A stretch of 46,724 nt of DNA from Methylomonas koyamae (GTDB lineage Bacteria; Pseudomonadota; Gammaproteobacteria; Methylococcales; Methylomonadaceae), in NCBI RefSeq assembly GCF_001644025.1, contig NZ_LUUK01000025.1:1-46724 (forward strand). Reading direction: 5' to 3'. Position numbers and translations under genes: made by a program. The notes beneath the pieces were generated by a model. It was given only the letters and a program-made list of their open reading frames with translations. It did no database searches and was not told the origin of the DNA. Positions 1 through 31,229 of this stretch are shown here, in pieces; within the stretch, counting starts at the first letter, position 1, and each line of letters begins with the position of its first letter.

Positions 1-657
1 CCTTCAAAGATCGCTTACGCTATTTTGGCTAATTCCTTTCCGGAGGAACTCAAAGAAATTGAGGCGGCCTTGCTGGCTTTCCGTATTACGAAGCGAGACT
101 TAGGAACGCAAGGTGGAAACAAATCCGATATACCCCAGAACTTTTCGCGTACTTTACGCCCTAGTGGATGGGTCGAATCACGGATTCAAGGAGACCTTAT
201 AGTGAGGCTTCATGAGTACGATGAACAGGTTTTGTCTGATGGAAAAGTCCAAAAAGTGAAACGCCCTGACACTAAAACTCAGCTGATCGAGGCCTTTACT
301 GATAGGCATAAAATCGACTATGTAAAAGGTCGTGTTGCCTTCTATTTTGAATGGAACTCAACCAAAGAAAAGTTCGACCGGGATTTGCATGCCTTTCGGG
401 CGTTCCACGAATTCGGACTGATTAGCTCGGTGGTCATCGTGACACGTAGCGATAACCTGAATCTCGTTTTGAACAAGGTGCCTCAGCTCAATAAAGCGGG
501 CGAGGAAACCGCTGAAACCGTAAAAGCAAAATACGGCGCCAGTACAACCCGGATGAACAAGCTCCTATACCGGCTCAATGCAGGATTGCATGAAGGTTGT
601 CCTGTTTTGGTATTCGGCAGAACGCCAAAATTGATTGACGATTGGGAACAAACATGA
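1..657 (+). CDS. BglII/BstYI-family type II restriction endonuclease (5' end cut by window edge)
   Basis: The frame is open from base 1 to a TGA at 655-657, so the true start is probably just outside the window. The first in-window start candidate is a TTG at 25. The core from about residue 110 (counted from that TTG) reads as the catalytic strand region of BglII/BstYI-type enzymes: IDYVKGR, then FEWNS, then FDRDLHAFRAFHEFGLIS, with Asp, Glu and Asn spaced as in the D-x(8-9)-E-x-N active site. The tail with YGASTT and CPVLVFG is also typical. These enzymes cut DNA at short palindromes, with protection by a cognate methyltransferase. No methyltransferase is visible in this window, so it must lie to the left or be absent. 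The family call is from recalled motifs; the cut specificity is unknown. Confidence 0.72.
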   Translation, partial: PSKIAYAILANSFPEELKEIEAALLAFRITKRDLGTQGGNKSDIPQNFSRTLRPSGWVESRIQGDLIVRLHEYDEQVLSDGKVQKVKRPDTKTQLIEAFTDRHKIDYVKGRVAFYFEWNSTKEKFDRDLHAFRAFHEFGLISSVVIVTRSDNLNLVLNKVPQLNKAGEETAETVKAKYGASTTRMNKLLYRLNAGLHEGCPVLVFGRTPKLIDDWEQT

Positions 658-978: not shown

Positions 979-2298
979 CTAGCTTCTTCCGCAAACGTGG
1001 CATTCGCCATTCAGTGTTTCGTCGATGCGTTCAATCGCGTGAAGACTGCCGTTATTGAAATCGCACTGCCATAAGTCCCATGAACCAAGTCCGGCTATAC
1101 GTCGCTGCAACTCAAGGACAAGCGTACCGGCGACCAGGCTGTTGATCGACATTACTGACGGTGCAGGCACATCCGGCACATAGCCGTTTTGCTGTGCATG
1201 ATCCCAAACCTCACCGCCTACATAGCGTCTGGCATCCAACGAAGCTTGGCCAGGATGCAAACGCCCTGAGCAGATCGGGCAGTAGCGTCCCAGTTCGGCA
1301 CCAGAGATTTCGGCCAACAGACGCTTTGGCTGTTCATCGAGCAGAATTTCAACGCCGCCTTGCAAAAAGACCGCACCACTCTCCAGTGCCAACTGAAGGC
1401 ATTCAATCCTTGATAGGTGATTGTCTGTCAGCGCCAAAATTACATCGCAGGCTTGCAAAGCCCTTTTACAGCGGCTCGATGCGGTGTAGACATCCTCGGT
1501 AAAGACCTTTACTTTGGTTGCCGATCCAACACTTCTACCTGCCTGGGCAATCAACCGAGACGCTACTTTGACCTTGAACCTGCCTATGTCGCGCCGATGA
1601 ACCGAAGGCAACCGATTCAGATTGGTTTCTTCCACACGGTCAAAGTCTACCAGGGTGAAGTTTTGAAATCCTGCTCTGACCAGTGGCTCGATGACGGCCA
1701 TACCTACGCCCCCAAGGCCGACAATACCAATGTGTAGTTCATTGGTTGCTTGCCTAAGCCCCTGTCCAAAAGCCGCTTGGCGTAATAACGCCGGGTTTTC
1801 ATGCTCATTCGATGCAGCACCCAACGGTCGTAACCCGGCTTGGATTGCGCATGGGTGCGTGGCATCGTCAGACCATAATCGCGCTTGCGGTTGACCCCCG
1901 CAGGGTAAAACAAGGCTCAGAAAGAGCGGCTGATTTTGGGCTCTGAGCCACCTGCTGGTCTCTGACTCATGCGAGTCATCGCAAGCGCTGAAATCATTTA
2001 CTCCTGGCGGGTGGGAATGAATATGCAGAGGAACCAAACCATCCTTTGCCGCATCGGCCGAAATCCGATTGAAATGCGCCGCCGCCGCTTGGGATAATGC
2101 CAAGCCGCCACTGCTTTGCCGCATATAATCAGTCGAATCGGGAAAAACGACATGTTCAACCGCGTAATCAATCCGTTGTCCGCCGCGTTTTTGTGGGCGA
2201 GCCAGCCCGAACGCAAAGCGCTCGGGCGGATGCGGAAGCAAGCGGTTTTGCAATGATTGCCAGTGGTGTTCCGTGAAAACCAACTTGCGCATACTCAT
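979..2298 (-). CDS. JAB/JAMM peptidase-E1 (ThiF/HesA-type adenylyltransferase) fusion
   Basis: 439 aa with two domains. Residues ~1-150 form a JAB/MPN metalloprotease-like domain with a complete JAMM signature, HSHPPGVNDFSACD (His94, His96, Ser104, Asp107). Residues ~185-425 form an E1-like domain: nucleotide-binding GIVGLGGVGM at ~191-200, then the VDFDRVEETNLNR adenylation segment at ~217-229. Two CxxC pairs (C340/C343 and C433/C436) probably bind a structural zinc. By family knowledge, E1 domains activate a ubiquitin-like C-terminus with ATP and JAB domains cleave ubiquitin-like conjugates or precursors, so one polypeptide could both load and release the modifier. Its ATG overlaps the end of the E2 gene by 4 bp, making it the last gene of a tight operon. 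Assignment to a specific published system is inference. Confidence 0.82.
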   Translation of the reverse strand: MSMRKLVFTEHHWQSLQNRLLPHPPERFAFGLARPQKRGGQRIDYAVEHVVFPDSTDYMRQSSGGLALSQAAAAHFNRISADAAKDGLVPLHIHSHPPGVNDFSACDDSHESETSRWLRAQNQPLFLSLVLPCGGQPQARLWSDDATHPCAIQAGLRPLGAASNEHENPALLRQAAFGQGLRQATNELHIGIVGLGGVGMAVIEPLVRAGFQNFTLVDFDRVEETNLNRLPSVHRRDIGRFKVKVASRLIAQAGRSVGSATKVKVFTEDVYTASSRCKRALQACDVILALTDNHLSRIECLQLALESGAVFLQGGVEILLDEQPKRLLAEISGAELGRYCPICSGRLHPGQASLDARRYVGGEVWDHAQQNGYVPDVPAPSVMSINSLVAGTLVLELQRRIAGLGSWDLWQCDFNNGSLHAIERIDETLNGECHVCGRS

Positions 2299-2705
2299 TG
2301 ATTTTCCACCTCATTGAATAGCGTCATGACCACATTTACATAGGAGAGCAAACTGTGGCGCCCTGGCCGCCATCCCTCGGCTATGCCACAGAACCATCGC
2401 CAGCCTGGTATCACCTGTGCGCCGTGGTATGCGCGGCCCTCGAATAGATGGGAGCGATCTAGCGTGCCAAGTATGGCGTTCTCCTTCAAGTAAAATCCAA
2501 TCGGCGAACTCAGCGGGTAATTTTTCGGCAGCAGCACAAGCGCATCGGTGCGAGTGCCATCGGGAAGGATCAACTCTTTTAGCCGAAGACACCATCCCCA
2601 GTCAGTTTGCTCGGGGGGACGAATCCCCCCGAAACCGGCTGACTTCAAATCCTCAAACTCGCGCTTCAATGCGGCGGGTAGCGATGTTGATGTCAACATA
2701 CCCAT
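2295..2705 (-). CDS. Prokaryotic E2-like (family E type) protein
   Basis: 136 aa. The sequence fits the prokaryotic 'E2 family E' pattern: a hydrophobic strand ALVLLP, a YPLSSP turn like the YPxxPP segment of ubiquitin-conjugating enzymes, an aromatic WRWFCGIAEGW block, and a closing helix with WRPG and a run of hydrophobics. Cys106 in the WFCG block is the only obvious candidate for a thioester-forming cysteine. The gene overlaps the ubiquitin-like gene upstream and the E1/JAB gene downstream by a few bases each, so translation is likely coupled. The role inferred is transfer of the small modifier from the E1 to a target. Family membership is from recalled patterns, not a search. Confidence 0.72.
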   Translation of the reverse strand: MGMLTSTSLPAALKREFEDLKSAGFGGIRPPEQTDWGWCLRLKELILPDGTRTDALVLLPKNYPLSSPIGFYLKENAILGTLDRSHLFEGRAYHGAQVIPGWRWFCGIAEGWRPGRHSLLSYVNVVMTLFNEVENQ

Positions 2706-2956
2706 TACCTCGTGACAAACAAAGAAGCCGCCTTCACAATCGCCGGCCCCAACGATAGCGTGTCACCCGGTTTTAAGTCCACGGATTCACCGTCGCGCAA
2801 AGGTCGAGAGCGCTTGGCTCCACCCGCTTTACTAGAGGCGTGATAGATTGCCTCCCCCCTCTCAGGCTGTAGGGATGCGGCGATTTCCGCATAGGTTCGA
2901 CGCTCGAAGCGACGCGGCCTCAAAAAGCCATTCTCTGCAGGTTCAAACGCGCTCAT
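2705..2956 (-). CDS. Small ubiquitin-like (multiubiquitin-type) protein
   Basis: 83 aa. Its second half resembles the end of multiubiquitin (beta-grasp) domains: a helix TYAEIAASLQ, a strand EAIYHASS, then LRDGESVDLKPGDTLSLGP, where the DxxVDLxPGD pattern is characteristic. The N-terminal strand pair is short or divergent, and the C-terminus (FVTR) lacks a Gly-Gly tail. The Ubl call therefore depends on the partial pattern plus position between a NYN nuclease and an E2-like gene. It overlaps both neighbours by 1-4 bp, consistent with co-translation in one operon. If it is the modifier, the C-terminus may need trimming, or it may act as a non-conjugated adaptor. The alternative is an unrelated small accessory protein of the E2. 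Confidence 0.55.
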   Translation of the reverse strand: MSAFEPAENGFLRPRRFERRTYAEIAASLQPERGEAIYHASSKAGGAKRSRPLRDGESVDLKPGDTLSLGPAIVKAASLFVTR

Positions 2957-3510
2957 GCTGTCTCCTCTGCGGCAATTGCTTCTAACAATTTTTCTAAGTC
3001 AACAACATGATAAGCGGCTTCTCGTAACTCACCGGCGACATTGCGTCCGACCACTTCGGTTCTAATTCCCCATTCCCTCAGCTCCCAAACCATCGGAGCA
3101 TAGTCACCGTCCGACGCGAACAAGGTTAAAAAATCGGGTTTTAGTCGCAAGCACGTTGACAGCGTTTTGATCATCAATCGTTGATCGTCCGACTGTTTAA
3201 AGTCACCGCTCGGCGTGCGTTTGGCAGGGCAGATGAACACGCGCGCCGCTGTTTGTCGCTGCAATGCGGCGCTGAGGTTGCGCGCCTGCAAAGTTACCGT
3301 CGCTAGCGCCTCGGCACTGTCGTTCTCGGGAACGCGTTCGGGGATGAAAATCATCTGTTCCAGGATATCCACGCCGTCATCGTTAACCTGCTTTATCACA
3401 CTCCCCCAACGTGGCAATGGGCCGCCCTGCAAGATTTTCTGGAACGCGCTGTTAGTATTTTGCCAATCAGTGGAAGTGATTTTTGTAGCTTTTGTTGTAA
3501 CTTGATACAT
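2953..3510 (-). CDS. NYN-domain (PIN-like) nuclease
   Basis: 185 aa. Acidic motifs of the NYN/LabA-type PIN fold are in order: an N-terminal TDWQN (Asp15, Asn18), a central KQSDDQRLMIKTL (Asp108/Asp109), and the signature FASDGDYAPMVWELREWG (Asp134, Asp136), followed by a strand with TEVVG. These residues coordinate metal for RNA (sometimes DNA) cleavage in the family. It is the first gene of a four-gene minus-strand operon ending in the E1/JAB gene, with its stop overlapping the start of the ubiquitin-like gene. A GAGAG-like stretch precedes the ATG. The context suggests a nuclease effector controlled by, or a target of, ubiquitin-like modification; that link is inference. Confidence 0.8.
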   Translation of the reverse strand: MYQVTTKATKITSTDWQNTNSAFQKILQGGPLPRWGSVIKQVNDDGVDILEQMIFIPERVPENDSAEALATVTLQARNLSAALQRQTAARVFICPAKRTPSGDFKQSDDQRLMIKTLSTCLRLKPDFLTLFASDGDYAPMVWELREWGIRTEVVGRNVAGELREAAYHVVDLEKLLEAIAAEETA

Positions 3511-3685: not shown

Positions 3686-4735
3686 TCAATGCTCTGATCG
3701 ACATTCCTCGCCGTCATCATCAATTAATGCGCTCATTATCATGATGTCCAAACTTCTACCGTCTTTATCGAATCGATGAAGCTTTTGGCATAGAGATTTA
3801 ATCGTGCCTTCAGAGATGCAGGGGATAGTATTTTGATCCCCGCTTTCTTGGATAGCCTCCTCTACGAGCTTGTCCCAAATGTTGTTGAACGCTTTGTCTG
3901 CGCTCTCCCAAAGTTGTGGCTTTCGGTCCTTGGTTTTTGGGCGTAGTTCGTAGAACAAGTCAATGGCGCGACTTTTTACTATGTTTTTTTGGGAACGACT
4001 TTTCTTCGCATTGTCCTTGGCCCGAATCTTGGCTGCTACCGCGGGTAAACGATCCATTAAGTACCGCGCTCCGTCATACATGCCAATAAGATTATTGACA
4101 TCGAGCAAGCATGAATACGCCTCGTGCAGGAGGCCTTGGTTTTGGTACCGTTCGGCTTGAATCAAAAGGCCGAACATTCCGAAAATCGAAATCGTCGTCT
4201 GGGGAGGGGTTGTTCTGCTGTTGGCGATATTCTCGATAGAGTCATCGTCCGTTACGCCTCGGAGCAGGTTGTTTATCAAAAGGTATAAGTCATCGCCGGG
4301 GGCCTCATGCTTCTTCAGCTCCGGAACAACTTGGGTTTGCAGAGCGGATTCCAATAATTTTAGGAATTCTTGATTCACGGTTGGGTGATCAAGAAGGTAG
4401 GTATCGAATTCCGATTCTGCCTTGAGACGTCCTCTGTAGTAGATTTGATAACAAACCACAGCTCGTTGCCAAAGACGGCGACGTTCGTTTTCGAAGTTGC
4501 GATTGGATCGGCCTTTTTTATAAAGAAGTGTTTCCTTTCCAGAGTACTGTGGTTTAATTTCCGCGTCGACAAACTTGAAGGCTTCGTCGATTTGCTTCGC
4601 ATCCAGTTGTTGAGAATCTGTAGTGTTGTTGAGTATTCGGAAAAAGCTGTCGTTTTCCAACGCTTCTCGCTGCAATGCGCGTCGAAGGTCGGCCCTAGGA
4701 TGGGCTTCATCTTTGATGATTTGACGGTCGGACAT
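3686..4735 (-). CDS. Hypothetical helical protein in the defence island
   Basis: 349 aa, not recognised. It appears largely helical and charged, with no membrane segment or signal peptide. Visible traits are an N-terminal acidic/basic stretch, a basic RRRLWQRAVV segment around residue 85-95, and a Lys/Arg-rich patch (AKKSRSQKNIVKSR) near residue 245 that could contact nucleic acid. It lies on the same strand as, and upstream of, the NYN-Ubl-E2-E1 operon. The 175-bp spacer carries the three hairpins, one terminator-like, so co-transcription is possible but would pass through that structure. It could be an accessory or regulatory subunit of the island; no function is assigned. Confidence 0.6.
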   Translation of the reverse strand: MSDRQIIKDEAHPRADLRRALQREALENDSFFRILNNTTDSQQLDAKQIDEAFKFVDAEIKPQYSGKETLLYKKGRSNRNFENERRRLWQRAVVCYQIYYRGRLKAESEFDTYLLDHPTVNQEFLKLLESALQTQVVPELKKHEAPGDDLYLLINNLLRGVTDDDSIENIANSRTTPPQTTISIFGMFGLLIQAERYQNQGLLHEAYSCLLDVNNLIGMYDGARYLMDRLPAVAAKIRAKDNAKKSRSQKNIVKSRAIDLFYELRPKTKDRKPQLWESADKAFNNIWDKLVEEAIQESGDQNTIPCISEGTIKSLCQKLHRFDKDGRSLDIMIMSALIDDDGEECRSEH

Positions 4736-5200: not shown

Positions 5201-6199
5201 ATGGCTTCCGGAGCACTATTAAGACAGCTTATTAAGTCAGGTTCCGAGGGCGACTCAGAATCTTTTCGTCGTGTTTCGGAAAAAATTATTCAGGAAGAAC
5301 GCGATAAGCAACACCATCTTTTGGCCAACGACTTGGAAAAAATCCTTTACGGCCGACGCAGCTCTTCCGAACAAGCAAAGCGGTTTGTATTTTCGAAACT
5401 GCCGGAAGATAAAGAGCGCGGCTTGGCGCTATTGCAGATAAAGGAGCCCTTACGCCGAATTGATGATGTGGTTTTGTCTGATGAAAACCGTTCTCTGTTG
5501 GACGAAATCCTAGAAGAGCACCATCGTGTAGAAACTCTTAAATCGCATGGCTTATTTCCCGCTGACAGATTACTTTTCTGTGGGCCACCCGGCTGCGGTA
5601 AAACTTTGTCGGCAGAAATTGTTGCCGCAGAATTGAGTTTGCCTTTGGCTATTGTCCGAATCGATAGCGTTGTTTCTTCTTATCTGGGTGAGACTGCTGC
5701 AAATCTGCGCAAAGTGTTCGACTTTATCGCCGCCGTTCCAATGGTGGTTTTATTTGACGAGTTTGATGCCTTGGCAAAAGAACGTGCCGACAGTGCAGAA
5801 CATGGCGAGTTAAAACGCGTTGTAAATGCTTTTTTACAAATGTTGGACGCTTATGACGGTAAAAGTCTGTTAATCGCAGCTACCAATCATGAAGGTATTT
5901 TGGATTCTGCAATTTGGCGACGCTTTGACGAAGTGTTAGTTTTCGAAGCCCCCAATTTGGAACAGCTTAGACGTCTACTAACGATCAAACTTAAAGGTGT
6001 ACGCAGGGAATTCGATATCGACAACAGCAAAATTTCTGGTTTATTCAAAGGAATGTCGCACGCCGATGTCGAACGGGTTTTGCGTCGTGCCATTAAGGAA
6101 AAAGTTTTATCCGGTAAAGAGTTTTTAACCGAACGCCACATTCAGTCGGCCATCCGCCGAGAAGATGCAAGAAGGAATAGGGTTTCTAAACAGGAATAG
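5201..6199 (+). CDS. ietA: AAA+ ATPase of an IetAS-type anti-phage pair
   Basis: 332 aa. It has a helical N-terminus of ~80 residues, then a single AAA+ module: Walker A GPPGCGKT (128-135), pore-like SSYLGET (159-165), Walker B VVLFDE (182-187), sensor-1 ATNH (227-230), and paired Arg in IWRRFD (240-241) as the finger, with a small helical lid at the C-terminus. This is the spastin/katanin-like classic AAA layout. The next gene, 6 bp downstream, is a subtilase. This ATPase-plus-S8-protease pair matches the reported IetAS defence system, where the ATPase probably recognises or remodels a trigger and licenses proteolysis. The ATG at 5201 is preceded by AT-rich sequence without a strong ribosome site. 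The gene name is by architecture, not by alignment. Confidence 0.8.
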   Translation: MASGALLRQLIKSGSEGDSESFRRVSEKIIQEERDKQHHLLANDLEKILYGRRSSSEQAKRFVFSKLPEDKERGLALLQIKEPLRRIDDVVLSDENRSLLDEILEEHHRVETLKSHGLFPADRLLFCGPPGCGKTLSAEIVAAELSLPLAIVRIDSVVSSYLGETAANLRKVFDFIAAVPMVVLFDEFDALAKERADSAEHGELKRVVNAFLQMLDAYDGKSLLIAATNHEGILDSAIWRRFDEVLVFEAPNLEQLRRLLTIKLKGVRREFDIDNSKISGLFKGMSHADVERVLRRAIKEKVLSGKEFLTERHIQSAIRREDARRNRVSKQE

Positions 6200-6205
6200 T
6201 TATTC

Positions 6206-8542
6206 ATGATATCAAGTTATCCACATTTGCCGTTGCAACGTGAGGAACCAATCACCGAAAAGAGACCAGGTAGTTATCATCCACCGCCACCGCCAGCCGA
6301 TCCTGCAGCGCATGCTAAAGCTCTCGGTTTACAGCTACAAAAAACTATCCAACAGACAGGTCAGGACATTGGTGGTTTTGATGATCGCAAATTGTTTCGT
6401 TTTCAGGTAGAGAAAGGCTTCAACCCCGACGAACTGAGAAAGATTTCCAGAGAAATTGAATTCGTTAGTCAAGAGAACGACGAAATCGTGGTTGCCTTTG
6501 TTAGTCAATCAGCGCTGCAATCTTTCGAAGCTAGATTAGCGTCGATAGGTAAAGGAGAATCCGTCACCAACAAACAAGTCTATTACGCATTGCATGCGAT
6601 GAGCGGATGGACTCCAGACGATAGAACCGGCTGGTCATTAAAGCAGGAAGGATTGCCAGAAACGGAAAGTTTTTATCTTGATCTTGAACTCTGGCCAATA
6701 GAGGACAACCCTAAAGAACGCCAGTTGCTTTTGAGTCGTTTCGAATCCTGGCTAAGAGAAAATGGCATCGAATCTCCTGATAGTGTTAAACAACCAGGCC
6801 TGACCATTTATCGTGTTCGCTGTGATCGTAATCAAGCAGAACAATTGCTACGTCACCGCGATATAAGGATCGTTGATTTACCGCCGCGTTTTGGCCTAAA
6901 TTTGAGGCATCTCGGTTTAGATATTCAGCACTTCCCCGTTCCCTCTTCGCCGCAACCCAATGCACCTGGGATTGTGGTTTTAGACAGTGGGTTGGCAACC
7001 GGGCACCCGTTGTTGGGATCAGCGGTGGGCGATGCACAAAGCTTTTTACCCGGCCACATGGCAGCTGACGAAACGGGGCATGGTACGCATGTCGCCGGTA
7101 TCGCTCTTTATGGCGACTTCACCAAGTCAATCGAGGCTGGCTCGTTCGTTCCGGAATTACGTCTTTTTAGCGGCCGAATTCTGGATAAAAACAATGAAAA
7201 TGATGGCTTGATTGAAAACCACATTGAGGCTGCCGTTCGCTATTTTGCCGATCAATACAGCTGCCGGGTTTTCAACCTGTCGTTCGGCGACAGCCGCAAA
7301 CCTTATCTCGGCGGGCATGTACGCGGTTTGGCATACACCTTGGACAGACTTTCACGTGAATTAAGCGTTTTATTCATTGTTTCGGCTGGAAATGTTCTGC
7401 CTGAACAGCAGGATGGTCTGGCATGGAAACAGAGCTATCCTCAGTATTTAGTCGACGATGAGTGGGCAATCATCGATCCGGCTACAGCCCTTAATGTGCT
7501 GACTGTTGGCAGTTTGGCTCGCTGGGAGGCTACCTTAAATGCTCAACGGAATAGTCACGATCCTGCTGAATTGCCAATAGCCAAAGTAGAACAGCCGTCT
7601 CCTTTTTCCCGTCACGGACCTTCTGTCGGTGGCGCCATAAAGCCTGAGTTGGTTGCTTTCGGCGGTAACTGGGCCTTGAACGCTCGTAATGGTGCCAACT
7701 ACATAATCGAGCAGGGTTTAGGCGAATTATCCACCAGCTTAGACTTTGCACAAGGTAGCCTACTCGGCGTTAAATGCGGCACAAGCTTTGCTGCTCCGCA
7801 TATTGCCCATATAGCAGGGAAAGTACTATCTGAGCATCCGGAAGCCAGCGCCAATTTAATACGGGCTTTATTGGTAACTCATGCCTCCATACCCTATGCC
7901 TCATCGGAAATTTTTGATGACCAAAATTTGATCAGAAAAGTGCTTGGCTATGGTCATGTCGATATGCGGGCATTATTCAAATCATTGGAAAATGAAGTAA
8001 ATCTGATTGCCGATGGCTTAATCGAGAACAAGCGGCATCATTTTTACGAATTATTGATACCGGACGACTTTGTTTCATCAGGCAAACGTATCCGTGAAAT
8101 AGTAGTCAGTCTGGCCCATACGCCACTGGTTCGATCAACTCGAGTCACTTACAAAGCAACCCGTTTGGATTACCGATTGATTGCTGCATCCGATCTTGAT
8201 CATGCGGTCAAAATGTTCAGCAAGGCAACGAGTAAAGACGACTTTGAAAACATCCCAGAGTTACCTAATGCAACCGTCAGTAGAAGTCTTAGAAGCAAAG
8301 GCACCGTTCAAAGTGCGATGTGGCAATTCAAGCAATTCAACCGCAATTCCAAATTAAAGACTGATAAGCTATTTGTAGTCGTTACCAGAAATGATCATCC
8401 TTGGGGTGAGGCTATTTCCAACACAACCGAGGAATATTCTCTGGTAGTTTGTTTACGTGATCGAGAGAATCAGCAAGCTAAATTATACAGCCAAATTCAG
8501 AGCCGCTTGCAGCAACGTCAACGAGCGAGGGCAAGAGGTTAA
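6206..8542 (+). CDS. ietS: Subtilisin-like (S8) serine protease of an IetAS-type anti-phage pair
   Basis: 778 aa. A long N-terminal region (1-250) has no signal peptide, so it is cytoplasmic. A complete subtilase domain follows, with Asp260 in VVLDSG, His292 in GHGTHVAG, oxyanion Asn396 in SAGN, and Ser527 in GTSFAAPH. The C-terminal ~200 residues (from ~580) look like a beta-rich domain of unknown role. Subtilases normally act outside the cell; a leaderless one coupled to an AAA+ gene fits the IetAS defence pair, where proteolysis of phage or host proteins is presumed. It begins 6 bp after the ATPase stop, so the two are one operon. All catalytic residues are intact. Confidence 0.85.
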   Translation: MISSYPHLPLQREEPITEKRPGSYHPPPPPADPAAHAKALGLQLQKTIQQTGQDIGGFDDRKLFRFQVEKGFNPDELRKISREIEFVSQENDEIVVAFVSQSALQSFEARLASIGKGESVTNKQVYYALHAMSGWTPDDRTGWSLKQEGLPETESFYLDLELWPIEDNPKERQLLLSRFESWLRENGIESPDSVKQPGLTIYRVRCDRNQAEQLLRHRDIRIVDLPPRFGLNLRHLGLDIQHFPVPSSPQPNAPGIVVLDSGLATGHPLLGSAVGDAQSFLPGHMAADETGHGTHVAGIALYGDFTKSIEAGSFVPELRLFSGRILDKNNENDGLIENHIEAAVRYFADQYSCRVFNLSFGDSRKPYLGGHVRGLAYTLDRLSRELSVLFIVSAGNVLPEQQDGLAWKQSYPQYLVDDEWAIIDPATALNVLTVGSLARWEATLNAQRNSHDPAELPIAKVEQPSPFSRHGPSVGGAIKPELVAFGGNWALNARNGANYIIEQGLGELSTSLDFAQGSLLGVKCGTSFAAPHIAHIAGKVLSEHPEASANLIRALLVTHASIPYASSEIFDDQNLIRKVLGYGHVDMRALFKSLENEVNLIADGLIENKRHHFYELLIPDDFVSSGKRIREIVVSLAHTPLVRSTRVTYKATRLDYRLIAASDLDHAVKMFSKATSKDDFENIPELPNATVSRSLRSKGTVQSAMWQFKQFNRNSKLKTDKLFVVVTRNDHPWGEAISNTTEEYSLVVCLRDRENQQAKLYSQIQSRLQQRQRARARG

Positions 8543-17972: not shown

Positions 17973-18402
17973 TCTCTTTCATTTTTTGCAGACAAGCCGT
18001 AATCTCGGTTGTTGCTGGGGCTAGGATCATGCAATATGCCTTATCCCTCGCGCCGGATAGAACAGGTTTAAGAGGATGAGCGCGCCTGGGATCTTCTGGA
18101 GGTTGGCTGACCAGAATCTGAAAGAGAGAAACTCCTATGAGTGGCAAGGCTTGATCTCGATTGAATGTCACTATAAGTACAACTTTAGTGTGTTCAAAAT
18201 CCGTTTTGCTAGTCCTGTAAGCTATTGAATTCAATGGGGGTAAATTCCCGCCATCACAAATTATGAGATTTTGTTAGGTTTTAACCTTTAAACATGAGAC
18301 TTTTTAAAAAAATGGAAATCTCATAATTTATGCAACTTGTTGATTTTTATGTGAGTTGATTTTTCAGAAATTATGAGATCTGACAATTGTCGGTTGAAAA
18401 TC
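17973..18402. other. Gap holding the right copy of the long repeat
   Basis: The first ~280 bp show no ORF or RNA. The remainder is the right repeat copy (18256-18393), which directly precedes the MNT gene and should contain its promoter. Confidence 0.5.
18256..18393 (+). repeat. Right copy of the ~135-bp direct repeat, upstream of mntA-like gene
   Basis: Same order of boxes as the left copy at 8662-8796: AAATTATGAGAT at 18258, a weaker AACATGAGAC at ~18291, inverted ATCTCATAATTT at ~18318, and AAATTATGAGATCTGACA at ~18368. Homology stops ~10 bp before the ATG of the nucleotidyltransferase, so this is probably the promoter/operator of that antitoxin gene. Confidence 0.75.
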
Positions 18403-18693
18403 ATGAAACCATCGGAAGCGCTCGAATCCAAACGCATGGCGATAAGCCAGATCGTTGGCCGGTTTCGAGCGGCCAATCCGCGTGTTTTCGGATCGGTGCT
18501 GTACGGCACCGACCGCGACGGCAGTGATCTTGATTTGTTGGTGGATACGCTGCCAGGAGCGACCTTGTTCGATCTCGGCGGTTTGCAACTTGAACTAGAG
18601 GATTTGCTGGCAGTCCCGGTCGATCTGCTGACTCCCGGCGATCTGCCAGCCAAGTTCCGCGATCGAATATTGGCCGAAGCTCAACCCGTATGA
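18403..18693 (+). CDS. MNT-family nucleotidyltransferase (MntA-type antitoxin), HEPN partner missing
   Basis: 96 aa from the ATG at 18403; an in-frame upstream ATG lies inside the repeat and gives a non-family N-terminus. The MNT signature is complete: FGSVLYGTDRDGSDLDLLV, i.e. GS-x(n)-G-x(n)-SDxDLxV. Such small proteins normally pair with a HEPN ribonuclease encoded immediately downstream with a 4-bp overlap. They neutralise it by AMPylation. Here an overlapping ATG (18690) does exist, but the frame closes after six codons at 18710, where an unrelated gene begins. The antitoxin therefore appears orphaned. Confidence 0.88.
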   Translation: MKPSEALESKRMAISQIVGRFRAANPRVFGSVLYGTDRDGSDLDLLVDTLPGATLFDLGGLQLELEDLLAVPVDLLTPGDLPAKFRDRILAEAQPV

Positions 18694-18709
18694 CAGTCAA
18701 ATTAGGATA

Positions 18710-20671
18710 ATGCTGACCTTATTCGATTTGCAATTAGATGTAGTTCCAGTACAAGTCGCGAAGCTAGCATTCGAACTTCATTGTCAATATACCCAAGAAC
18801 TCATAATTGAGCTAACAAACCCATCTACCATTTCGCCCCAAAAGATTGATGAGCTTTTTTACATTGAAGCAAATCAATTGATATTCAAATCCATAGCTGC
18901 GAGAAATCATTGCACAGCTGTAAATAGCTTTCGTAAGTTCGATAAAAATGACTCATCGATGTCTTTCAGACAGATATTTGATGAAGCTCATCAATTAGGC
19001 ATAAGTGAATTTCAAGAGATAGATACAGCTAGCGGGAGATTTTTGGGTTTAATGACTCAAACAGTGGATGTTCTAATTGCCGCAGTAGAAGCTATCGGTA
19101 GTGCGGATTCTAGTAAAGTCTTTCAAATTTTGAGAAGCATTGGAAATGCTTTGCCATTTCTAAGCAATTTTAGAGTGGAGGACTTAGTTGAATTAGTAGC
19201 TGCGCAGCATTTAAAAACTTCGGGCGATATGGCTGCGGGCATGTTTTTCGATCAATTGATTGACTACCTATCGATGGAGCCAGTACGGGCAAAAGCTCTG
19301 CATGCATTAGTTCGGGAAAACATTGCTAACGAAAATATCACTTTGTATTGCTCTGCCCTGATTGCTTTGGCAAAGGCAGAGCAAGGCCTTGAAGCCATTA
19401 AGCTTGCCTTGAATGATGTAAATTCCGATTGCATCAACCTTTCAGTAAGTGCTTTGCGGGCATTAGGTGGTATAAGTAATGAATGGGATACAGAACCGGG
19501 TTTAAAGAACGACATTCAGAAAGCCATAAAAACGTTGGTTCATCATCCAGATTCACGGATTAGTAGTCAGGCTATAAATACTTTATCCAATGCCGCAGCC
19601 GGTCAGCATGAGCTAATTCCAGAGCTATTAGCTTATGCTAAACCTGATAATCATTCAGTGATACAAGTGCTTAGTAGCTTTGTTTTTATGAATCTTGCGA
19701 TCGTCAAAGAGCTGCCAAATCTGACAGAGATATTATTAGCATTAACTAATTTAAAAGTTGGATATACACATAATTTTGACAGTGTGCTTTCGCGATTGAT
19801 TAAAAATGGTGCTCATGATCAATTGGTGTATGACTGTTTAACTATTTGGATGCTTAAAAATTACGATAGCAGAGCGTTAGACAAAAACTTTAGCTCGTGC
19901 TTTAACCAAAGCCTGATGCAATTGGTAAACAAACCTCTGTTGTCGGAATTGATTACACGTTGGCTAATTTCTGATGAACGGGCTTTGGGTGCGGCTTTTA
20001 GCGATGTTATTAGTTCTCTATGGAGTCATGGATTTCTTCAACCTGTTTTTTCTAAAGACGTTCTCGACACTTTAGAAAATGAAGATTTTAAATATCTCGC
20101 TCGGCGTTTACTCGGCTGGACATTTTTTGAAGAGCCTTTGCTTTCACTGACGTTTTCATTACTAGAGACAGAAGATGCGGAACGAAGAACCTATGGCTGG
20201 GTCCGCGCGTTGTTAGCGAATGATGTTGGACGAAATTATCCTATTGCTACACAGAAAGCCATTCAAGAAAAACTGACCAGTGCTACACCGGAGGTAGAAA
20301 AATTACTACAAGAAACGCAAGCAGAACTCCTTGTTTATGCTGACGCGATCAAGCAATTGCCTATTAGAAGCGAACTGTATCCACCGATGCCTGTGCGTAT
20401 ACGGCATGCCATTGCACTAAAAAGAGCAAAAGAACAACGAGAGGCAAGAGATAAATCTAGCGAGCACTCAATATTCCAACAACTCTTCACAACAGTCCCA
20501 ATAAAAGTTGGCACTGGCAGTTTTTCCATTTATGGCGACAAGATTGGTGAAATCACTCGCTTTGCTTCCCACTCAGTCTTTGTCACGTTACCTGCACAAT
20601 CTGTTATTGATCCTCTTAACGACGAAATTGCTCGAAGGGGCTTTAGATTGGTAAAACGAGGTGATGAATGA
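18710..20671 (+). CDS. Large helical-repeat (HEAT/ARM-like) protein, candidate defence component
   Basis: 653 aa, not recognised as a named family. From about residue 120 to 480 the sequence is a succession of amphipathic helix pairs, such as LYCSALIALAKAEQGLEAI, INLSVSALRALGG and ISSQAINTLSNAAAG, typical of HEAT/ARM-like solenoids. There are no membrane segments. The C-terminus after a charged linker (~600) ends in a small beta-rich piece. The DNA is distinctly AT-richer than the flanks, pointing to transfer. The ATG overlaps the TAA of the six-codon HEPN remnant frame (TAATG). The next gene overlaps by ATGA, so both are translated together. It could be a sensor or scaffold for the nuclease encoded next. 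Confidence 0.65.
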   Translation: MLTLFDLQLDVVPVQVAKLAFELHCQYTQELIIELTNPSTISPQKIDELFYIEANQLIFKSIAARNHCTAVNSFRKFDKNDSSMSFRQIFDEAHQLGISEFQEIDTASGRFLGLMTQTVDVLIAAVEAIGSADSSKVFQILRSIGNALPFLSNFRVEDLVELVAAQHLKTSGDMAAGMFFDQLIDYLSMEPVRAKALHALVRENIANENITLYCSALIALAKAEQGLEAIKLALNDVNSDCINLSVSALRALGGISNEWDTEPGLKNDIQKAIKTLVHHPDSRISSQAINTLSNAAAGQHELIPELLAYAKPDNHSVIQVLSSFVFMNLAIVKELPNLTEILLALTNLKVGYTHNFDSVLSRLIKNGAHDQLVYDCLTIWMLKNYDSRALDKNFSSCFNQSLMQLVNKPLLSELITRWLISDERALGAAFSDVISSLWSHGFLQPVFSKDVLDTLENEDFKYLARRLLGWTFFEEPLLSLTFSLLETEDAERRTYGWVRALLANDVGRNYPIATQKAIQEKLTSATPEVEKLLQETQAELLVYADAIKQLPIRSELYPPMPVRIRHAIALKRAKEQREARDKSSEHSIFQQLFTTVPIKVGTGSFSIYGDKIGEITRFASHSVFVTLPAQSVIDPLNDEIARRGFRLVKRGDE

Positions 20672-22377
20672 AACTGGTTATCTCCGAGTACCTTCGCACC
20701 CTTAAAGAGCGGGATGAGCTTGATCGTTTATTGCCAGACCTGTTATTGGAGATGGGTTACGTTCCTGTGGCACGTCCGCAAACGGGTAATCGACAATACG
20801 GGGTAGATATCGCAGCCAGAGGTAAAAATAAGGAAACAAAGGTTGATGAGTTGCTGCTTTTGGTGGTTAAGCAAGGAGACATTGGCCGAAGCGAATGGGA
20901 TAGCGGCAATCAGTCCGTACGCCAAAGCATCAATGAAATTTTTGACGTCTCTTCAAAGTCCAATCTCGAACCACAGGATAAAGAACGCAGCATTCGCATC
21001 GTGGTTGCCACTGGTGGAGACTTGAAACAAACCGTACAAGAAAACTGGAAGGGGTTTGTCAGTAATAACCAGGATAAAGCATGCATTGAATTTTGGGGCG
21101 CTGATGTTATCGCTACTCTGATCGAAAAATATCTTTTGGATGAACATATTTTTCTTGACGATGACCGGCGCGATTTGCGGCGTGCGCTGGCACTATCCGG
21201 CGATAGTGAATACGACAGGCAAGATTTACATCGCTTATTTATGCGTACGCTGGATTTGAATGACAACGGAGAGTTACTCGACAAACTAAAGACAGGAAAG
21301 GCCTTGTTGAAGGCTTTGCGGATCGTCAATCTGTCTGCTCAGGCGTTTGCACATTGGACACTACGAGATGATGGAGACACTCGCCAAGGTCTTTTTGCGG
21401 TAGAACAAGCCTTGCTTTGGTCGTGGCATCGCATTCAACTCGCTGACGAGAAAACCAGAAATGACGCTATTGCTGGACCTTTCGGCGCGATGTGGTGGGG
21501 TTATTACCGTTTTGCGGCGCAATACTTCGCTAGGATTCAGCCGTATTGTTTCGTGGAAAATAGTTTGACTCGATTTGCCTCTAATGGAGTGGAAGCTTCT
21601 CTGATCACCTTTGAACAAATCGGTATCCTGGCAAGCATCGCATTATTTTTAGGTTTCCATCCAGCCTCCACGGAGGAAGAGAAAAATTCTTTTTTTAATG
21701 ATGCCGGTGAGGTGATTAATGCTTTGGAGGCATTGTTAAACAATAATGGGGTTAGCAGTTCACCCTGTCTTGACCGGCATAGCCAAGACATCACCTTGGC
21801 TCTTTTTGCATTATTTGGAATGGGGCGACTAGAAACTGCCAAGGAATGGTTGCACAAACTGTTTCGCAACGTCGATTACGCTTATAAAGCTAAGAAATTT
21901 ATCCCCATTGCCACGGATTCTTTAGATGATTTGGTAGAGGAAGGCGGCTGGTTAGGAGGGCAAGCCACTGATCGTATGATGGAAATGTCTTGGACGCTGG
22001 CCACTATTGCAGGCTGGAGTGTTATTCTAGGTATGGATGATCTTTATGAAGTGTTAGCGGAAAATGTTAAAGATGCATACCCTAATGTATGTATCCAAAT
22101 CTGGCATCCTGAAAAAGACCTATATCAATATCTCTATTTCCAGACGGCTCATTTCGATTCCGGTGCGACCGAAGCGCCAATCCATTTGCCACCAACGGCA
22201 GCAGAATATAGAAAACAGATGAATATGATTCGGGAATCTGATTTTGGAAAAATTCTCTTTGACTCACCGGCAGCCAAGGAACAACTTATTGGGCTAGATC
22301 TCATTGCTTATCGTCATTTTCAAACACCGATTCCACCTTCAGTTTGGTATTCGCTTCTAAACAATGTTGCTATTTAA
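20668..22377 (+). CDS. PD-(D/E)xK-like nuclease domain protein, candidate defence effector
   Basis: 569 aa. The N-terminal ~170 residues look like a restriction-endonuclease fold: a helix-rich start, GVDIAARG with Asp47, then DELLLLVVKQGDI with Lys68 on a hydrophobic strand, followed by RSEWDSGNQSVRQSINEI and IRIVVATGGDLKQ, then FWGADVIATLIEKYL. The residue two before Lys68 is Val rather than Glu/Gln, so the canonical (E/Q)xK is altered; Glu61 may substitute. The remaining ~400 residues are helical and of unknown role. Overlap of 4 bp with the helical-repeat gene and shared AT-rich composition argue for a two-gene module. Nuclease activity is inference. Confidence 0.6.
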   Translation: MKLVISEYLRTLKERDELDRLLPDLLLEMGYVPVARPQTGNRQYGVDIAARGKNKETKVDELLLLVVKQGDIGRSEWDSGNQSVRQSINEIFDVSSKSNLEPQDKERSIRIVVATGGDLKQTVQENWKGFVSNNQDKACIEFWGADVIATLIEKYLLDEHIFLDDDRRDLRRALALSGDSEYDRQDLHRLFMRTLDLNDNGELLDKLKTGKALLKALRIVNLSAQAFAHWTLRDDGDTRQGLFAVEQALLWSWHRIQLADEKTRNDAIAGPFGAMWWGYYRFAAQYFARIQPYCFVENSLTRFASNGVEASLITFEQIGILASIALFLGFHPASTEEEKNSFFNDAGEVINALEALLNNNGVSSSPCLDRHSQDITLALFALFGMGRLETAKEWLHKLFRNVDYAYKAKKFIPIATDSLDDLVEEGGWLGGQATDRMMEMSWTLATIAGWSVILGMDDLYEVLAENVKDAYPNVCIQIWHPEKDLYQYLYFQTAHFDSGATEAPIHLPPTAAEYRKQMNMIRESDFGKILFDSPAAKEQLIGLDLIAYRHFQTPIPPSVWYSLLNNVAI

Positions 22378-30248: not shown

Positions 30249-31229
30249 ATGGAAACAAATACGACATCGGCACCGCCAAAAAAACGACTGGATCAGGTAC
30301 GCGATAAAATTCGTTTCAAGCATTACAGCCTGAGTACCGAGGATACCTACGTGTCCTGGATTAAGCAATTTATTTTGTTTAACGCCAAGCGTCATCCGAC
30401 GAAGATGTGAGCGGCCGAAGTCGAACGGTTCTTGACCTATCTGGCAACCGAGCGGCATGGCTCCAGCTCCACGCAAAATCAGGCTTTGTCGGCCATTCTG
30501 TTTTTGTATCGCGACGTGCTGGCGGTGCAATTGCCTTGGTTGGACGGCTTCGAGCGCTCGAAAAAGCCGCGCGGATTGCCGGTGGTGTTGACGACGGCCG
30601 AAGTGCGGCAACTGCTCAAACACGCGGAATCAGCGCCGCCGCCGATAGGCCTCCTCATTCGCTTGCTTTACGGCACCGGCATGCGATTGATGGAAGCGGT
30701 GCGTTTGCGGGTCAAGGATGTGGAGTTATCCCGTAAGGAGATTGTGGTTCGCGACGGCAAGGGCGGCAAAGACCGCGTAACGATGTTGCCGGATAGTTTG
30801 TTGGAGCCGATGCGGACACAACTGACGCTGCGCAAGTCTTGGCACGACGAGGATTTGCGCTTGGGGAAAGTCGATGTCTGGTTGCCCGACGCGCTGGCGG
30901 TCAAATATCCCAACGCGGCAAGGGAATGGGGCTGGCAATACGTGTTTGCAGCGGCAAATTATTCCGTCGATCCGCGTTCCAAAGTCGAACGCCGCCACCA
31001 TGTCGATGAAAAGCAGGTGCAGCGCTATGTCAAAAAAGCGGCCGCGGCGGCGGGCGTCGTCAAGCCGACTTCGCCGCATACTCTGCGCCATTCTTTCGCG
31101 ACCCATATATTGCAAGCCGGCTACGACATTCGTACCGTGCAGGAGTTGCTCGGCCACAGCGATGTCTCCACAACCGTAACTATTCAGCGCGAAGTAAAAA
31201 CGCCCTCTCCCGACGGAGCGGGGGGGTGA
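30249..31229 (+). pseudogene. intI: Integron integrase (IntI), inactivated by nonsense codon and C-terminal loss
   Basis: The frame from the ATG at 30249 reads as IntI: RDKIRFKHYSLSTEDTYVSW, then a TGA at 30408-30410 (codon 54) where family members have a Gly-like residue, then AAEVERFLTYLA onward without shift. Arm and core motifs remain: LLYGTGMRLMEA with the first catalytic Arg, KGGKDR, the IntI-specific extra patch ending in REWGWQYVFAA, HTLRHSFATH, and LLGHSDVSTT. After TTV the sequence diverges to an unrelated tail, and the expected YTH with the nucleophilic Tyr is missing. It is therefore dead by two independent lesions. It lies divergent to the cassette array, the standard position. 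Confidence 0.93.

What the first reader, a model, noticed from the sequence alone, without database searches (positions are those of the whole stretch)
979..3510. NYN nuclease-Ubl-E2-(JAB/E1 fusion) operon
Four genes overlap by 1-4 bp and together hold every part of a minimal ubiquitin-like pathway (modifier, E2, E1, de-conjugating peptidase), with E1 and JAMM peptidase on one chain, plus a NYN nuclease read first. JAMM residues, the E1 nucleotide loop and the E2 Cys are visible directly. Known bacterial Bil and Bub-type systems have Ubl, E1, E2 and peptidase; a NYN-led version with a fused E1/JAB is, as far as I can recall, not a described defence type. Modification could switch the nuclease on or off.
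Basis: partly seen in the sequence, partly recalled or inferred. Interest (0 to 1): 0.85.

Follow-up and report, generated by a model that had tools for sequence, protein, structure and literature searches.

The report
Ubiquitin-like cassette paired with RNase
A bacterium carries a compact set of ubiquitin-like tagging genes read together with a predicted RNA-cutting enzyme; the same pairing turns up in some distant bacteria, a few times beside CRISPR genes, which suggests a little-known branch of bacterial ubiquitin-like pathways.

Summary
In detail: four minus-strand genes (979-3510) overlap by 4, 1 and 4 bases and encode a NYN nuclease, an 83-aa putative ubiquitin-like protein (Ubl), an E2 with a Cys, and a JAB-E1 fusion. 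The fusion is not new: it defines operon type 6e / Bub; its closest solved relative is Citrobacter BubCD. New is a separate branch: ten such JAB-E1 rows split from 16 multi-ubiquitin rows with 100/99 support. Nine of nine readable loci carry NYN, against 0 of 19 other loci opened. Ten of ten E2s read GWxW[FY]C where ten multi-ubiquitin E2s and BubB have Ser (SxH). Three cyanobacterial members lie in CRISPR loci (two annotated type III-B), one from the window's order beside a CRISPR-type reverse transcriptase and double Cas2; the window's copy is stand-alone, in a defence island with IetAS and Olokun. Best guess: Ubl conjugation controls or targets the NYN RNase in defence. Unproven: Ubl fold (model inconclusive), conjugation (tail ...IVKA-ASLFVTR, no Gly; E1 without a conserved catalytic Cys), phage protection. 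New variant of a known kind.

The parts
2953..3510 (-). NYN (PIN-like) nuclease gene, 185 aa, first gene of the operon; conserved D15, N18, D109, D134
   Evidence: PF01936 E 1.2e-8 over cut-off; 48-50% identical to NYN of L057/L058/L060, 25-27% to L015/L020; residues invariant in six aligned rows, window included; nearest solved sequence relative of the profile 2qip E 5.7e-7
2705..2956 (-). putative ubiquitin-like protein, 83 aa
   Evidence: Multi_ubiq E 0.007, under cut-off; 43% and 39% identical to the Ubl part of L057 and L058; three of eight aligned members match ThiS-like ubiquitin PF14453, best E 5.8e-4; structure model inconclusive
2708..2728 (-). 7-residue tail ASLFVTR of the Ubl after ...GPAIVKA; cyanobacterial and L015/L020 relatives have ...KG where this reads KA
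   Evidence: alignments; ends
2295..2705 (-). E2 (UBC-fold) gene, 136 aa
2388..2390 (-). codon of E2 Cys106 in GWRWFC, the position held by Ser in multi-ubiquitin E2s and BubB
979..2298 (-). JAB peptidase-E1 fusion, 439 aa
   Evidence: ThiF E 1.7e-26, Prok-JAB E 2.5e-4; best PDB match Citrobacter BubCD E 3.6e-17 over residues 4-398, profile E 1.5e-43
1954..2232 (-). JAB/JAMM domain match within the fusion (H94, H96, S104, D107; E26)
   Evidence: (place of the Prok-JAB match)
1348..1776 (-). ThiF/E1 adenylation domain match within the fusion, residues 175-317
   Evidence: invariant residues

Best explanation
A cassette of the Bub / type-6e superfamily, but of its own NYN-linked branch. Proposed working: (1) the JAB domain trims the Ubl tail (...IVKA|ASLFVTR here; ...SKG|E2 in fused relatives) [inferred]; (2) the E1 domain adenylates the trimmed Ubl tail [inferred from conserved ATP-site residues]; (3) as the E1 has no conserved catalytic Cys, the Ubl passes from AMP directly to the E2 Cys106, where BubB carries Ser [inferred]; (4) the E2 places the Ubl on a target, most likely the co-translated NYN RNase or a protein bound to it, and the JAB domain removes it again, so that RNA cutting by NYN is switched by infection or stress [inferred]. 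Shown here: the gene set, the catalytic residues, the family ties, the recurring NYN partner and the E2 Cys. Family placement about 0.9 likely; NYN as the regulated effector about 0.4; defence as the role about 0.65.
For: JAB-E1 aligns with Citrobacter BubCD over residues 4-398 (profile) and the E2 model best with BubB. NYN-type JAB-E1 rows (10) separate from multi-ubiquitin rows (16) with 100/99 support and in 100% of 200 bootstrap trees. NYN sits in the same gene cluster in nine of nine readable loci, from the window's order, cyanobacterial plasmids and a Desulfobacula MAG, and in 0 of 19 other loci opened. The relatives were found by JAB-E1 or E2, not by NYN. GWxW[FY]C in ten of ten E2s or E2 pieces of the branch. 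Ubl and E2 occur fused in L015, L020 and L057 and as separate genes in the window and cyanobacteria. Defence setting: IetAS and Olokun in the window, CRISPR genes beside four relatives; a same-species genome (G066) has no JAB-E1 match.
Against: No experiment. The Ubl model (pLDDT 70.3, pTM 0.41) matched no Ubl, the Ubl profile found no Ubl in the PDB, and its profile comparison with multi-ubiquitin proteins gave 33% probability. The E2 model is one usable model of five (pLDDT 65.1, the others 35-50). The Ubl tail lacks Gly. Nothing shows that NYN is a substrate. NYN genes are common (8 of 14 control genomes), and L039 has a second NYN on the other strand. Gene order varies (L020: NYN, JAB-E1, Ubl~E2). 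Rows include near-copies (L057/L058 NYN 99% identical; L015/L059 E2 98%), so independent cases are fewer than nine. The 19 contrast loci were picked, not sampled: of 107 and 138 plasmid records with a JAB-E1 match I opened 13 neighbourhoods. The own genome has no Cas10, so the CRISPR link is not general.
Confidence: 0.5

Rival explanations
1. Two-armed defence: the Ubl is conjugated to phage or other foreign proteins, as in Bil, and NYN is a separate effector that cuts RNA; the genes share an operon but NYN is not modified.
For: Bil tags phage proteins (recalled; Bil parts in a review's passages, PMC11354881). Gene order and spacing of NYN vary among relatives, and in the three cyanobacteria another gene (CorA-like in PADLOC for L033, E 1.6e-6) lies between NYN and Ubl, so strict NYN-Ubl coupling is not conserved.
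Against: NYN is present in all nine readable loci of the branch and absent from the 16 multi-ubiquitin loci opened, which suggests more than a chance effector.
Confidence: 0.25
2. An RNA-handling or stress module rather than defence: Ubl tagging adjusts an RNase of host RNA metabolism or of CRISPR RNA/adaptation.
For: Four relatives sit beside adaptation genes (cas1 and/or cas2, or reverse transcriptase plus Cas2), and others carry a REC-like gene downstream. Bub operons may be stress systems (PMC13373217 passages).
Against: Patchy presence (6 of 311 genomes with a NYN-type E2), plasmid copies in cyanobacteria, and a defence-island setting fit accessory defence better.
Confidence: 0.2
3. The Ubl is not conjugated: the E1 only adenylates it (or binds it), and Ubl-E2 acts as a non-covalent adaptor, as in inactive E2/RWD domains.
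For: No Gly at the window's Ubl end; Ubl fused to E2 in L015, L020 and L057; E1 without a conserved catalytic Cys; 6e E2s were read as inactive (PMC1779556 section 14).
Against: E2 Cys kept in ten of ten, JAMM and ATP-site residues conserved, Gly-ended Ubl in two of three cyanobacterial members.
Confidence: 0.12
4. A decaying remnant of a Bub-type operon.
For: Ubl tail without Gly; G066 of the same species has no JAB-E1 match.
Against: All four frames open with tight overlaps and the expected catalytic residues.
Confidence: 0.05

Closest known systems
Bub (bacterial ubiquitination-like) systems, Citrobacter BubCD/BubB
   Same: JAB and E1 on one chain, aligning along most of their length; separate E2 of the same fold; small Ubl; many in immune settings (passages)
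   Different: E2 has Cys where BubB has Ser in SxH; NYN gene present; JAB-E1 on a branch apart from multi-ubiquitin JAB-E1s (BubCD itself was not in the tree); one Ubl domain; no DUF6527 gene seen in the window
Operon type 6e of Iyer, Burroughs and Aravind 2006 (multi-Ubl, inactive E2/RWD-like domain, JAB-E1, Zn-finger protein)
   Same: JAB-E1 fusion, Ubl and E2-like domain fused or separate (PMC1779556 section 14)
   Different: 6e E2 domains are described as lacking Cys; here Cys is kept; NYN occurs in that paper only in the reference list
Operon type 6d of the same paper
   Same: stand-alone Ubl and stand-alone E2 with Cys
   Different: 6d has JAB on a separate chain with a JAB-N domain and an extra helical protein
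Bil (BilABCD)
   Same: Ubl, E1, E2 and JAMM peptidase in one operon
   Different: JAMM and E1 as separate proteins, E1 with a Cys domain, E2 with a Cys-Glu-His-His motif (review passages, PMC11354881)
CBASS Cap2/Cap3 and 6A-MBL
   Same: related ThiF/E1 domain
   Different: E2-E1 on one chain with other partners (recalled); the own genome has a separate 6A-MBL-like 1135-aa protein by eye (L023)
LabA-like NYN accessory (PADLOC PDLC01154)
   Same: NYN domain; matches the Microcystis (E 1.4e-9), L020 (3.7e-6) and window (0.0083) proteins
   Different: weak match for the window; no Ubl partner in that model

Membership tests
Bub / type 6e | JAB fused N-terminally to E1 on one chain | tested here: met
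Bub / type 6e | JAB-E1 homologous along its length to BubCD | tested here: met
   residues 4-398 to BubCD 7-399, E 3.6e-17
Bub / type 6e | separate or Ubl-fused domain of E2 fold | tested here: met
Bub / type 6e | E2 without the Cys (SxH at that place) | tested here: not met
   Cys in 10 of 10 E2s or pieces of the branch, window included; SxH in 10 of 10 multi-ubiquitin E2s and in BubB
Bub / type 6e | Ubl with one to three Multi_ubiq-type domains | tested here: inconclusive
   PF14452 E 0.007 under cut-off; hhalign prob 33%; model inconclusive
Bub / type 6e | JAB-E1 inside the multi-ubiquitin branch | tested here: not met
   split 100/99 between 10 NYN-type and 16 multi-ubiquitin rows, unrooted, long branches flagged; BubCD not included
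Bub / type 6e | DUF6527-type Zn-finger gene after JAB-E1 | tested here: inconclusive
   none in the 978 bases between JAB-E1 and the contig end, but the contig ends there
Bil | JAMM peptidase and E1 as separate proteins | tested here: not met
   one 439-aa chain
Bil | E1 with catalytic Cys domain | tested here: not met
   only the two CxxC pairs are invariant Cys in 10 aligned rows; the window protein has further, unconserved Cys
Type 6d | JAB on its own chain with JAB-N domain | tested here: not met
   JAB-E1 fusion
NYN nucleases | PF01936 over the curated cut-off and conserved acidic residues | tested here: met
   36 bits against 24.2; D15, D109, D134 invariant in six rows
NYN nucleases | RNase activity | not testable with these tools
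   needs an enzyme assay
Type III CRISPR accessory module | lies with type III cas genes | tested here: not met
   no Cas10 in the own genome with TIGR02577 or TIGR02578 at E 0.001. Relatives: L033 and L038 annotated type III-B, L039 CRISPR with a RAMP protein
Anti-phage defence system | protects cells against phage | not testable with these tools
   needs phage challenge

The most novel reading that the evidence does not exclude
A third kind of bacterial ubiquitin-like pathway beside Bil and Bub: an E1 without its own catalytic Cys loads a short Ubl (...KG or ...KA after JAB trimming) straight onto an E2 Cys, and conjugation switches a dedicated NYN RNase. The module works alone or as an RNA-cutting accessory of CRISPR loci, giving a prokaryotic parallel to the NYN proteins N4BP1 and KHNYN that are tied to ubiquitin/NEDD8 in animals.
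Probability: 0.3. Interest if true: 0.85.

Novelty: new variant of a known kind. Interest (0 to 1): 0.62.

Why it matters
BubB has Ser where eukaryotic E2s use Cys (Ser seen; that Bub uses Ser-linked intermediates is recalled). A sister branch that keeps the E2 Cys but has no conserved E1 Cys is a natural test of how the two chemistries are related. A recurring RNase partner gives Ubl conjugation in bacteria a concrete candidate substrate or effector. The placing of the module beside CRISPR genes in four relatives would link two immune branches; I saw no paper that does so in the listings.

Tried and rejected

Choices and dropped rows: of 107 and 138 plasmid records with a JAB-E1 match I opened 13 neighbourhoods, cyanobacteria by preference after the first CRISPR case. 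Of the 16 multi-ubiquitin loci, eight bear that annotation (L029, L030, L032, L037, L040, L041, L042, L044) and eight were so read by eye (L016-L019, L021, L034-L036). Flanks of the 30 loci are limited (4.5 to 19 kb in all). The L060 Ubl row (partly out of frame) was left out of A9. L013 (JAB-E1 cut by the contig end) is not in the tree. L014 and L059 are counted as NYN-type in the tree by kinship, though their NYN region is not visible (transposase-like ORFs by eye; contig start); they are not in the nine. L023, L031 and L043 are in the 19 but not in the tree. The NYN profile holds seven of the nine NYN rows, so only L058 and L060 are not self-matches, and L058 is a near-copy of L057.

Literature: the paper search failed six times; paper reading by DOI failed. 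Searches that ran: 0 papers; 0; 7; 29, 20 listed; 1; 1,143, 12 listed; of listed papers I saw titles and abstract starts. None of those listed was, by title and abstract start, on a NYN-Ubl-E2-JAB/E1 operon. Seen: PMC1779556 outline, section 14 whole and passages; passages only of PMC11354881, PMC13373217, PMC12687455, PMC3710099, PMC4012209, PMC2848206. Not held: PMC12885553 (Ye 2026), PMC12145246 (Gong 2025), PMC11476048 (Chambers 2024), PMC5938088, PMC2732565, PMC6546367, PMC6003329. So 'not described' is a weak claim. N4BP1/KHNYN: titles and abstract starts, the rest recalled.
Full report
1. What is there. The four genes lie on the minus strand, in the order NYN (2953-3510), Ubl (2705-2956), E2 (2295-2705), JAB-E1 (979-2298), with ATGA, TAATG and ATGA junctions. 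Pfam names NYN and ThiF over cut-off, Prok-JAB somewhat under cut-off, Prok-E2_E and Multi_ubiq only weakly.

3. The branch. Relatives were collected by JAB-E1 or E2 similarity. JAB-E1 matched 9 of 201 genomes of the order at E 1e-10. The E2 profile matched 7 of 311 genomes of the order at E 0.001, of which G088 is weak and of multi-ubiquitin type by eye, so six are of this kind, the own included. The Microcystis E2 matched 3 of 72,556 plasmid records, its own and two more, all three with NYN and CRISPR genes. A Desulfobacula MAG gave JAB-E1 on one contig end and NYN, Ubl, E2 and the start of JAB-E1 on another, with frame breaks. G029, in the same order, matches a plasmid of Methylomagnum ishizawai in contig length and nearly in hit position, so the window's order is very likely Methylococcales; the genus was not established.

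4. NYN recurs. Nine loci have a readable neighbourhood: the window, L015, L020, L033, L038, L039, L057, L058 and L060. All nine carry NYN. With a NYN profile over six frames of 30 loci, hits fall in eight loci, all of this branch, and in 0 of 19 others (16 multi-ubiquitin loci, L023, L031, L043). Seven of the nine NYN rows built that profile; L058 and L060 did not, and L058 is 99% identical to L057. The other three of the 30 are L013, L014 and L059: L013 starts inside JAB-E1, transposase-like ORFs (by eye) abut JAB-E1 in L014, and L059 starts inside E2, so NYN cannot be judged there. The 19 were picked from larger lists, not sampled. The own genome has two NYN genes in 5.41 Mb, so adjacency by chance in even one genome is unlikely (inference). 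Near-copies mean that independent cases are fewer than nine.

5. The tree. Twenty-six JAB-E1 rows give a split of 10 NYN-type against 16 multi-ubiquitin rows, support 100/99 and in 100% of 200 bootstrap trees; within the branch three deep groups appear (window with L014, L057, L058; L015, L059, L020; the cyanobacteria) whose mutual order is not firm (87/75), long branches being flagged. The tree is unrooted and does not hold BubCD.

6. E2 Cys against Ser. Ten of ten E2s or E2 pieces of the branch read GWxW[FY]C. Ten of ten multi-ubiquitin E2s have SxH at the aligned place, as has BubB in the printed alignment. Iyer et al. 2006 describe type 6e E2 domains as lacking Cys. That Bub uses Ser-linked intermediates is recalled; the papers were not held. 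In the E1 only the two CxxC pairs are invariant Cys over ten rows, so a direct transfer from Ubl-AMP to the E2 Cys is the simplest reading.

7. The Ubl tail. Two cyanobacterial Ubls end exactly in ...VPKIVKG; the third goes on for eight residues; L015 and L020 read ...MPDRSKG and run on into E2; the window reads ...GPAIVKA-ASLFVTR and stops; L057 reads ...GPRVTKA and runs on into E2, and L058 likewise but with its E2 in another frame. A trimming step by JAB would make sense of these, but the window's Ubl would then end in Ala. This is the main weak point of the conjugation reading.

8. Surroundings. Window: BglII-type endonuclease at 25-657, IetAS at 5201-8542, PDC-S09 at 18373-18693 and Olokun OloA/OloB at 18710-22377, a phage-type integrase at 30432-31229. 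The same-species genome G066 has no JAB-E1 match at E 1e-10. Relatives: L033 (cas1, type III-B), L038 (cas2, type III-B) and L039 (cas1, cas2, RAMP) by annotation; L020 is followed by a reverse transcriptase whose best solved relative is Cas6-RT-Cas1 and by a protein with two Cas2 stretches. L015, L057, L058, L014 and L059 are followed by a protein with a GHKL-like C-end (by eye; Pfam sees only Sel1 in L015; the L057 protein matches only those of L015 and L058) and a response-regulator-like protein (Pfam E 1e-5 for L015, under cut-off) that matches across all five and has an Rx4H motif in four of four full-length copies, which recalls HEPN RNases (by eye). The own genome and G082 have no Cas10; G097, G976, G977, G1019 and G072 have, on other contigs than the module.

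9. Reading. It works most likely like Bub, by Ubl activation, E2 transfer and JAB reversal, but it fails two features tested for Bub/6e (E2 without Cys; place among multi-ubiquitin JAB-E1s), so I file it as a sister variant, not as a Bub operon. The recurring RNase partner makes NYN the best candidate for client or effector. A 2026 paper states that Bub operons have not been shown to protect against phage (passages); a 2025 review holds that Bil and Bub appear to act mainly against phages (passages). For this branch defence is inferred from neighbours only.

10. Verdict. Observation confirmed; interpretation partly supported; new variant of a known kind; interest 0.62.

Noticed in passing
window 5201-8542 (+): IetAS anti-phage system (AAA ATPase and subtilase), divergent from the NYN operon
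   Followed up: partly
window 18373-22377 (+): PDC-S09-like nucleotidyltransferase followed by Olokun OloA/OloB: the contig looks like a defence island
   Followed up: partly
window 25-657 (+): BglII-type restriction endonuclease (PF09195 E 7.3e-36) at the contig end; no methyltransferase between it and the operon
   Followed up: no
window 3686-4735 (-): 349-aa protein between NYN and IetAS with no Pfam family; no match in the 30 loci compared
   Followed up: partly
L057 7812-11683, L015 6288-9983, L058 3222-6914, L014 2946-5951, L059 1698-4468: Two genes after JAB-E1: a protein with GHKL-like end (by eye; Sel1 repeats in L015), then a REC-like protein with an RNW..H (Rx4H, HEPN-like) motif; perhaps a two-component RNase system of its own
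   Followed up: partly
L058 7192-8877, L014 619-2322, L015 10573-11499: A further conserved gene (about 560 aa, Nudix-like by eye) after the REC-like gene; a fragment match also in L057
   Followed up: no
L033 3223-3810, L038 5020-5484, L039 5331-5702: Cyanobacterial members have an extra protein, coiled coil and membrane helix by eye (PADLOC CorA-like E 1.6e-6 for L033), between NYN and Ubl
   Followed up: partly
L020 3100-4608: Reverse transcriptase (best solved relative Cas6-RT-Cas1) and a single protein with two Cas2 stretches, directly after NYN/JAB-E1/Ubl~E2
   Followed up: partly
L023 3239-6646 (own genome, C162): Separate 1135-aa protein with MBL-like start, E1-like region and JAB end (6A-MBL-like by eye; Prok-JAB match), so the genome may have a second Ubl-type system
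   Followed up: no
L039 3511-4479 (-): A second, divergently placed NYN protein next to the NYN-Ubl module in a Nostoc plasmid
   Followed up: no
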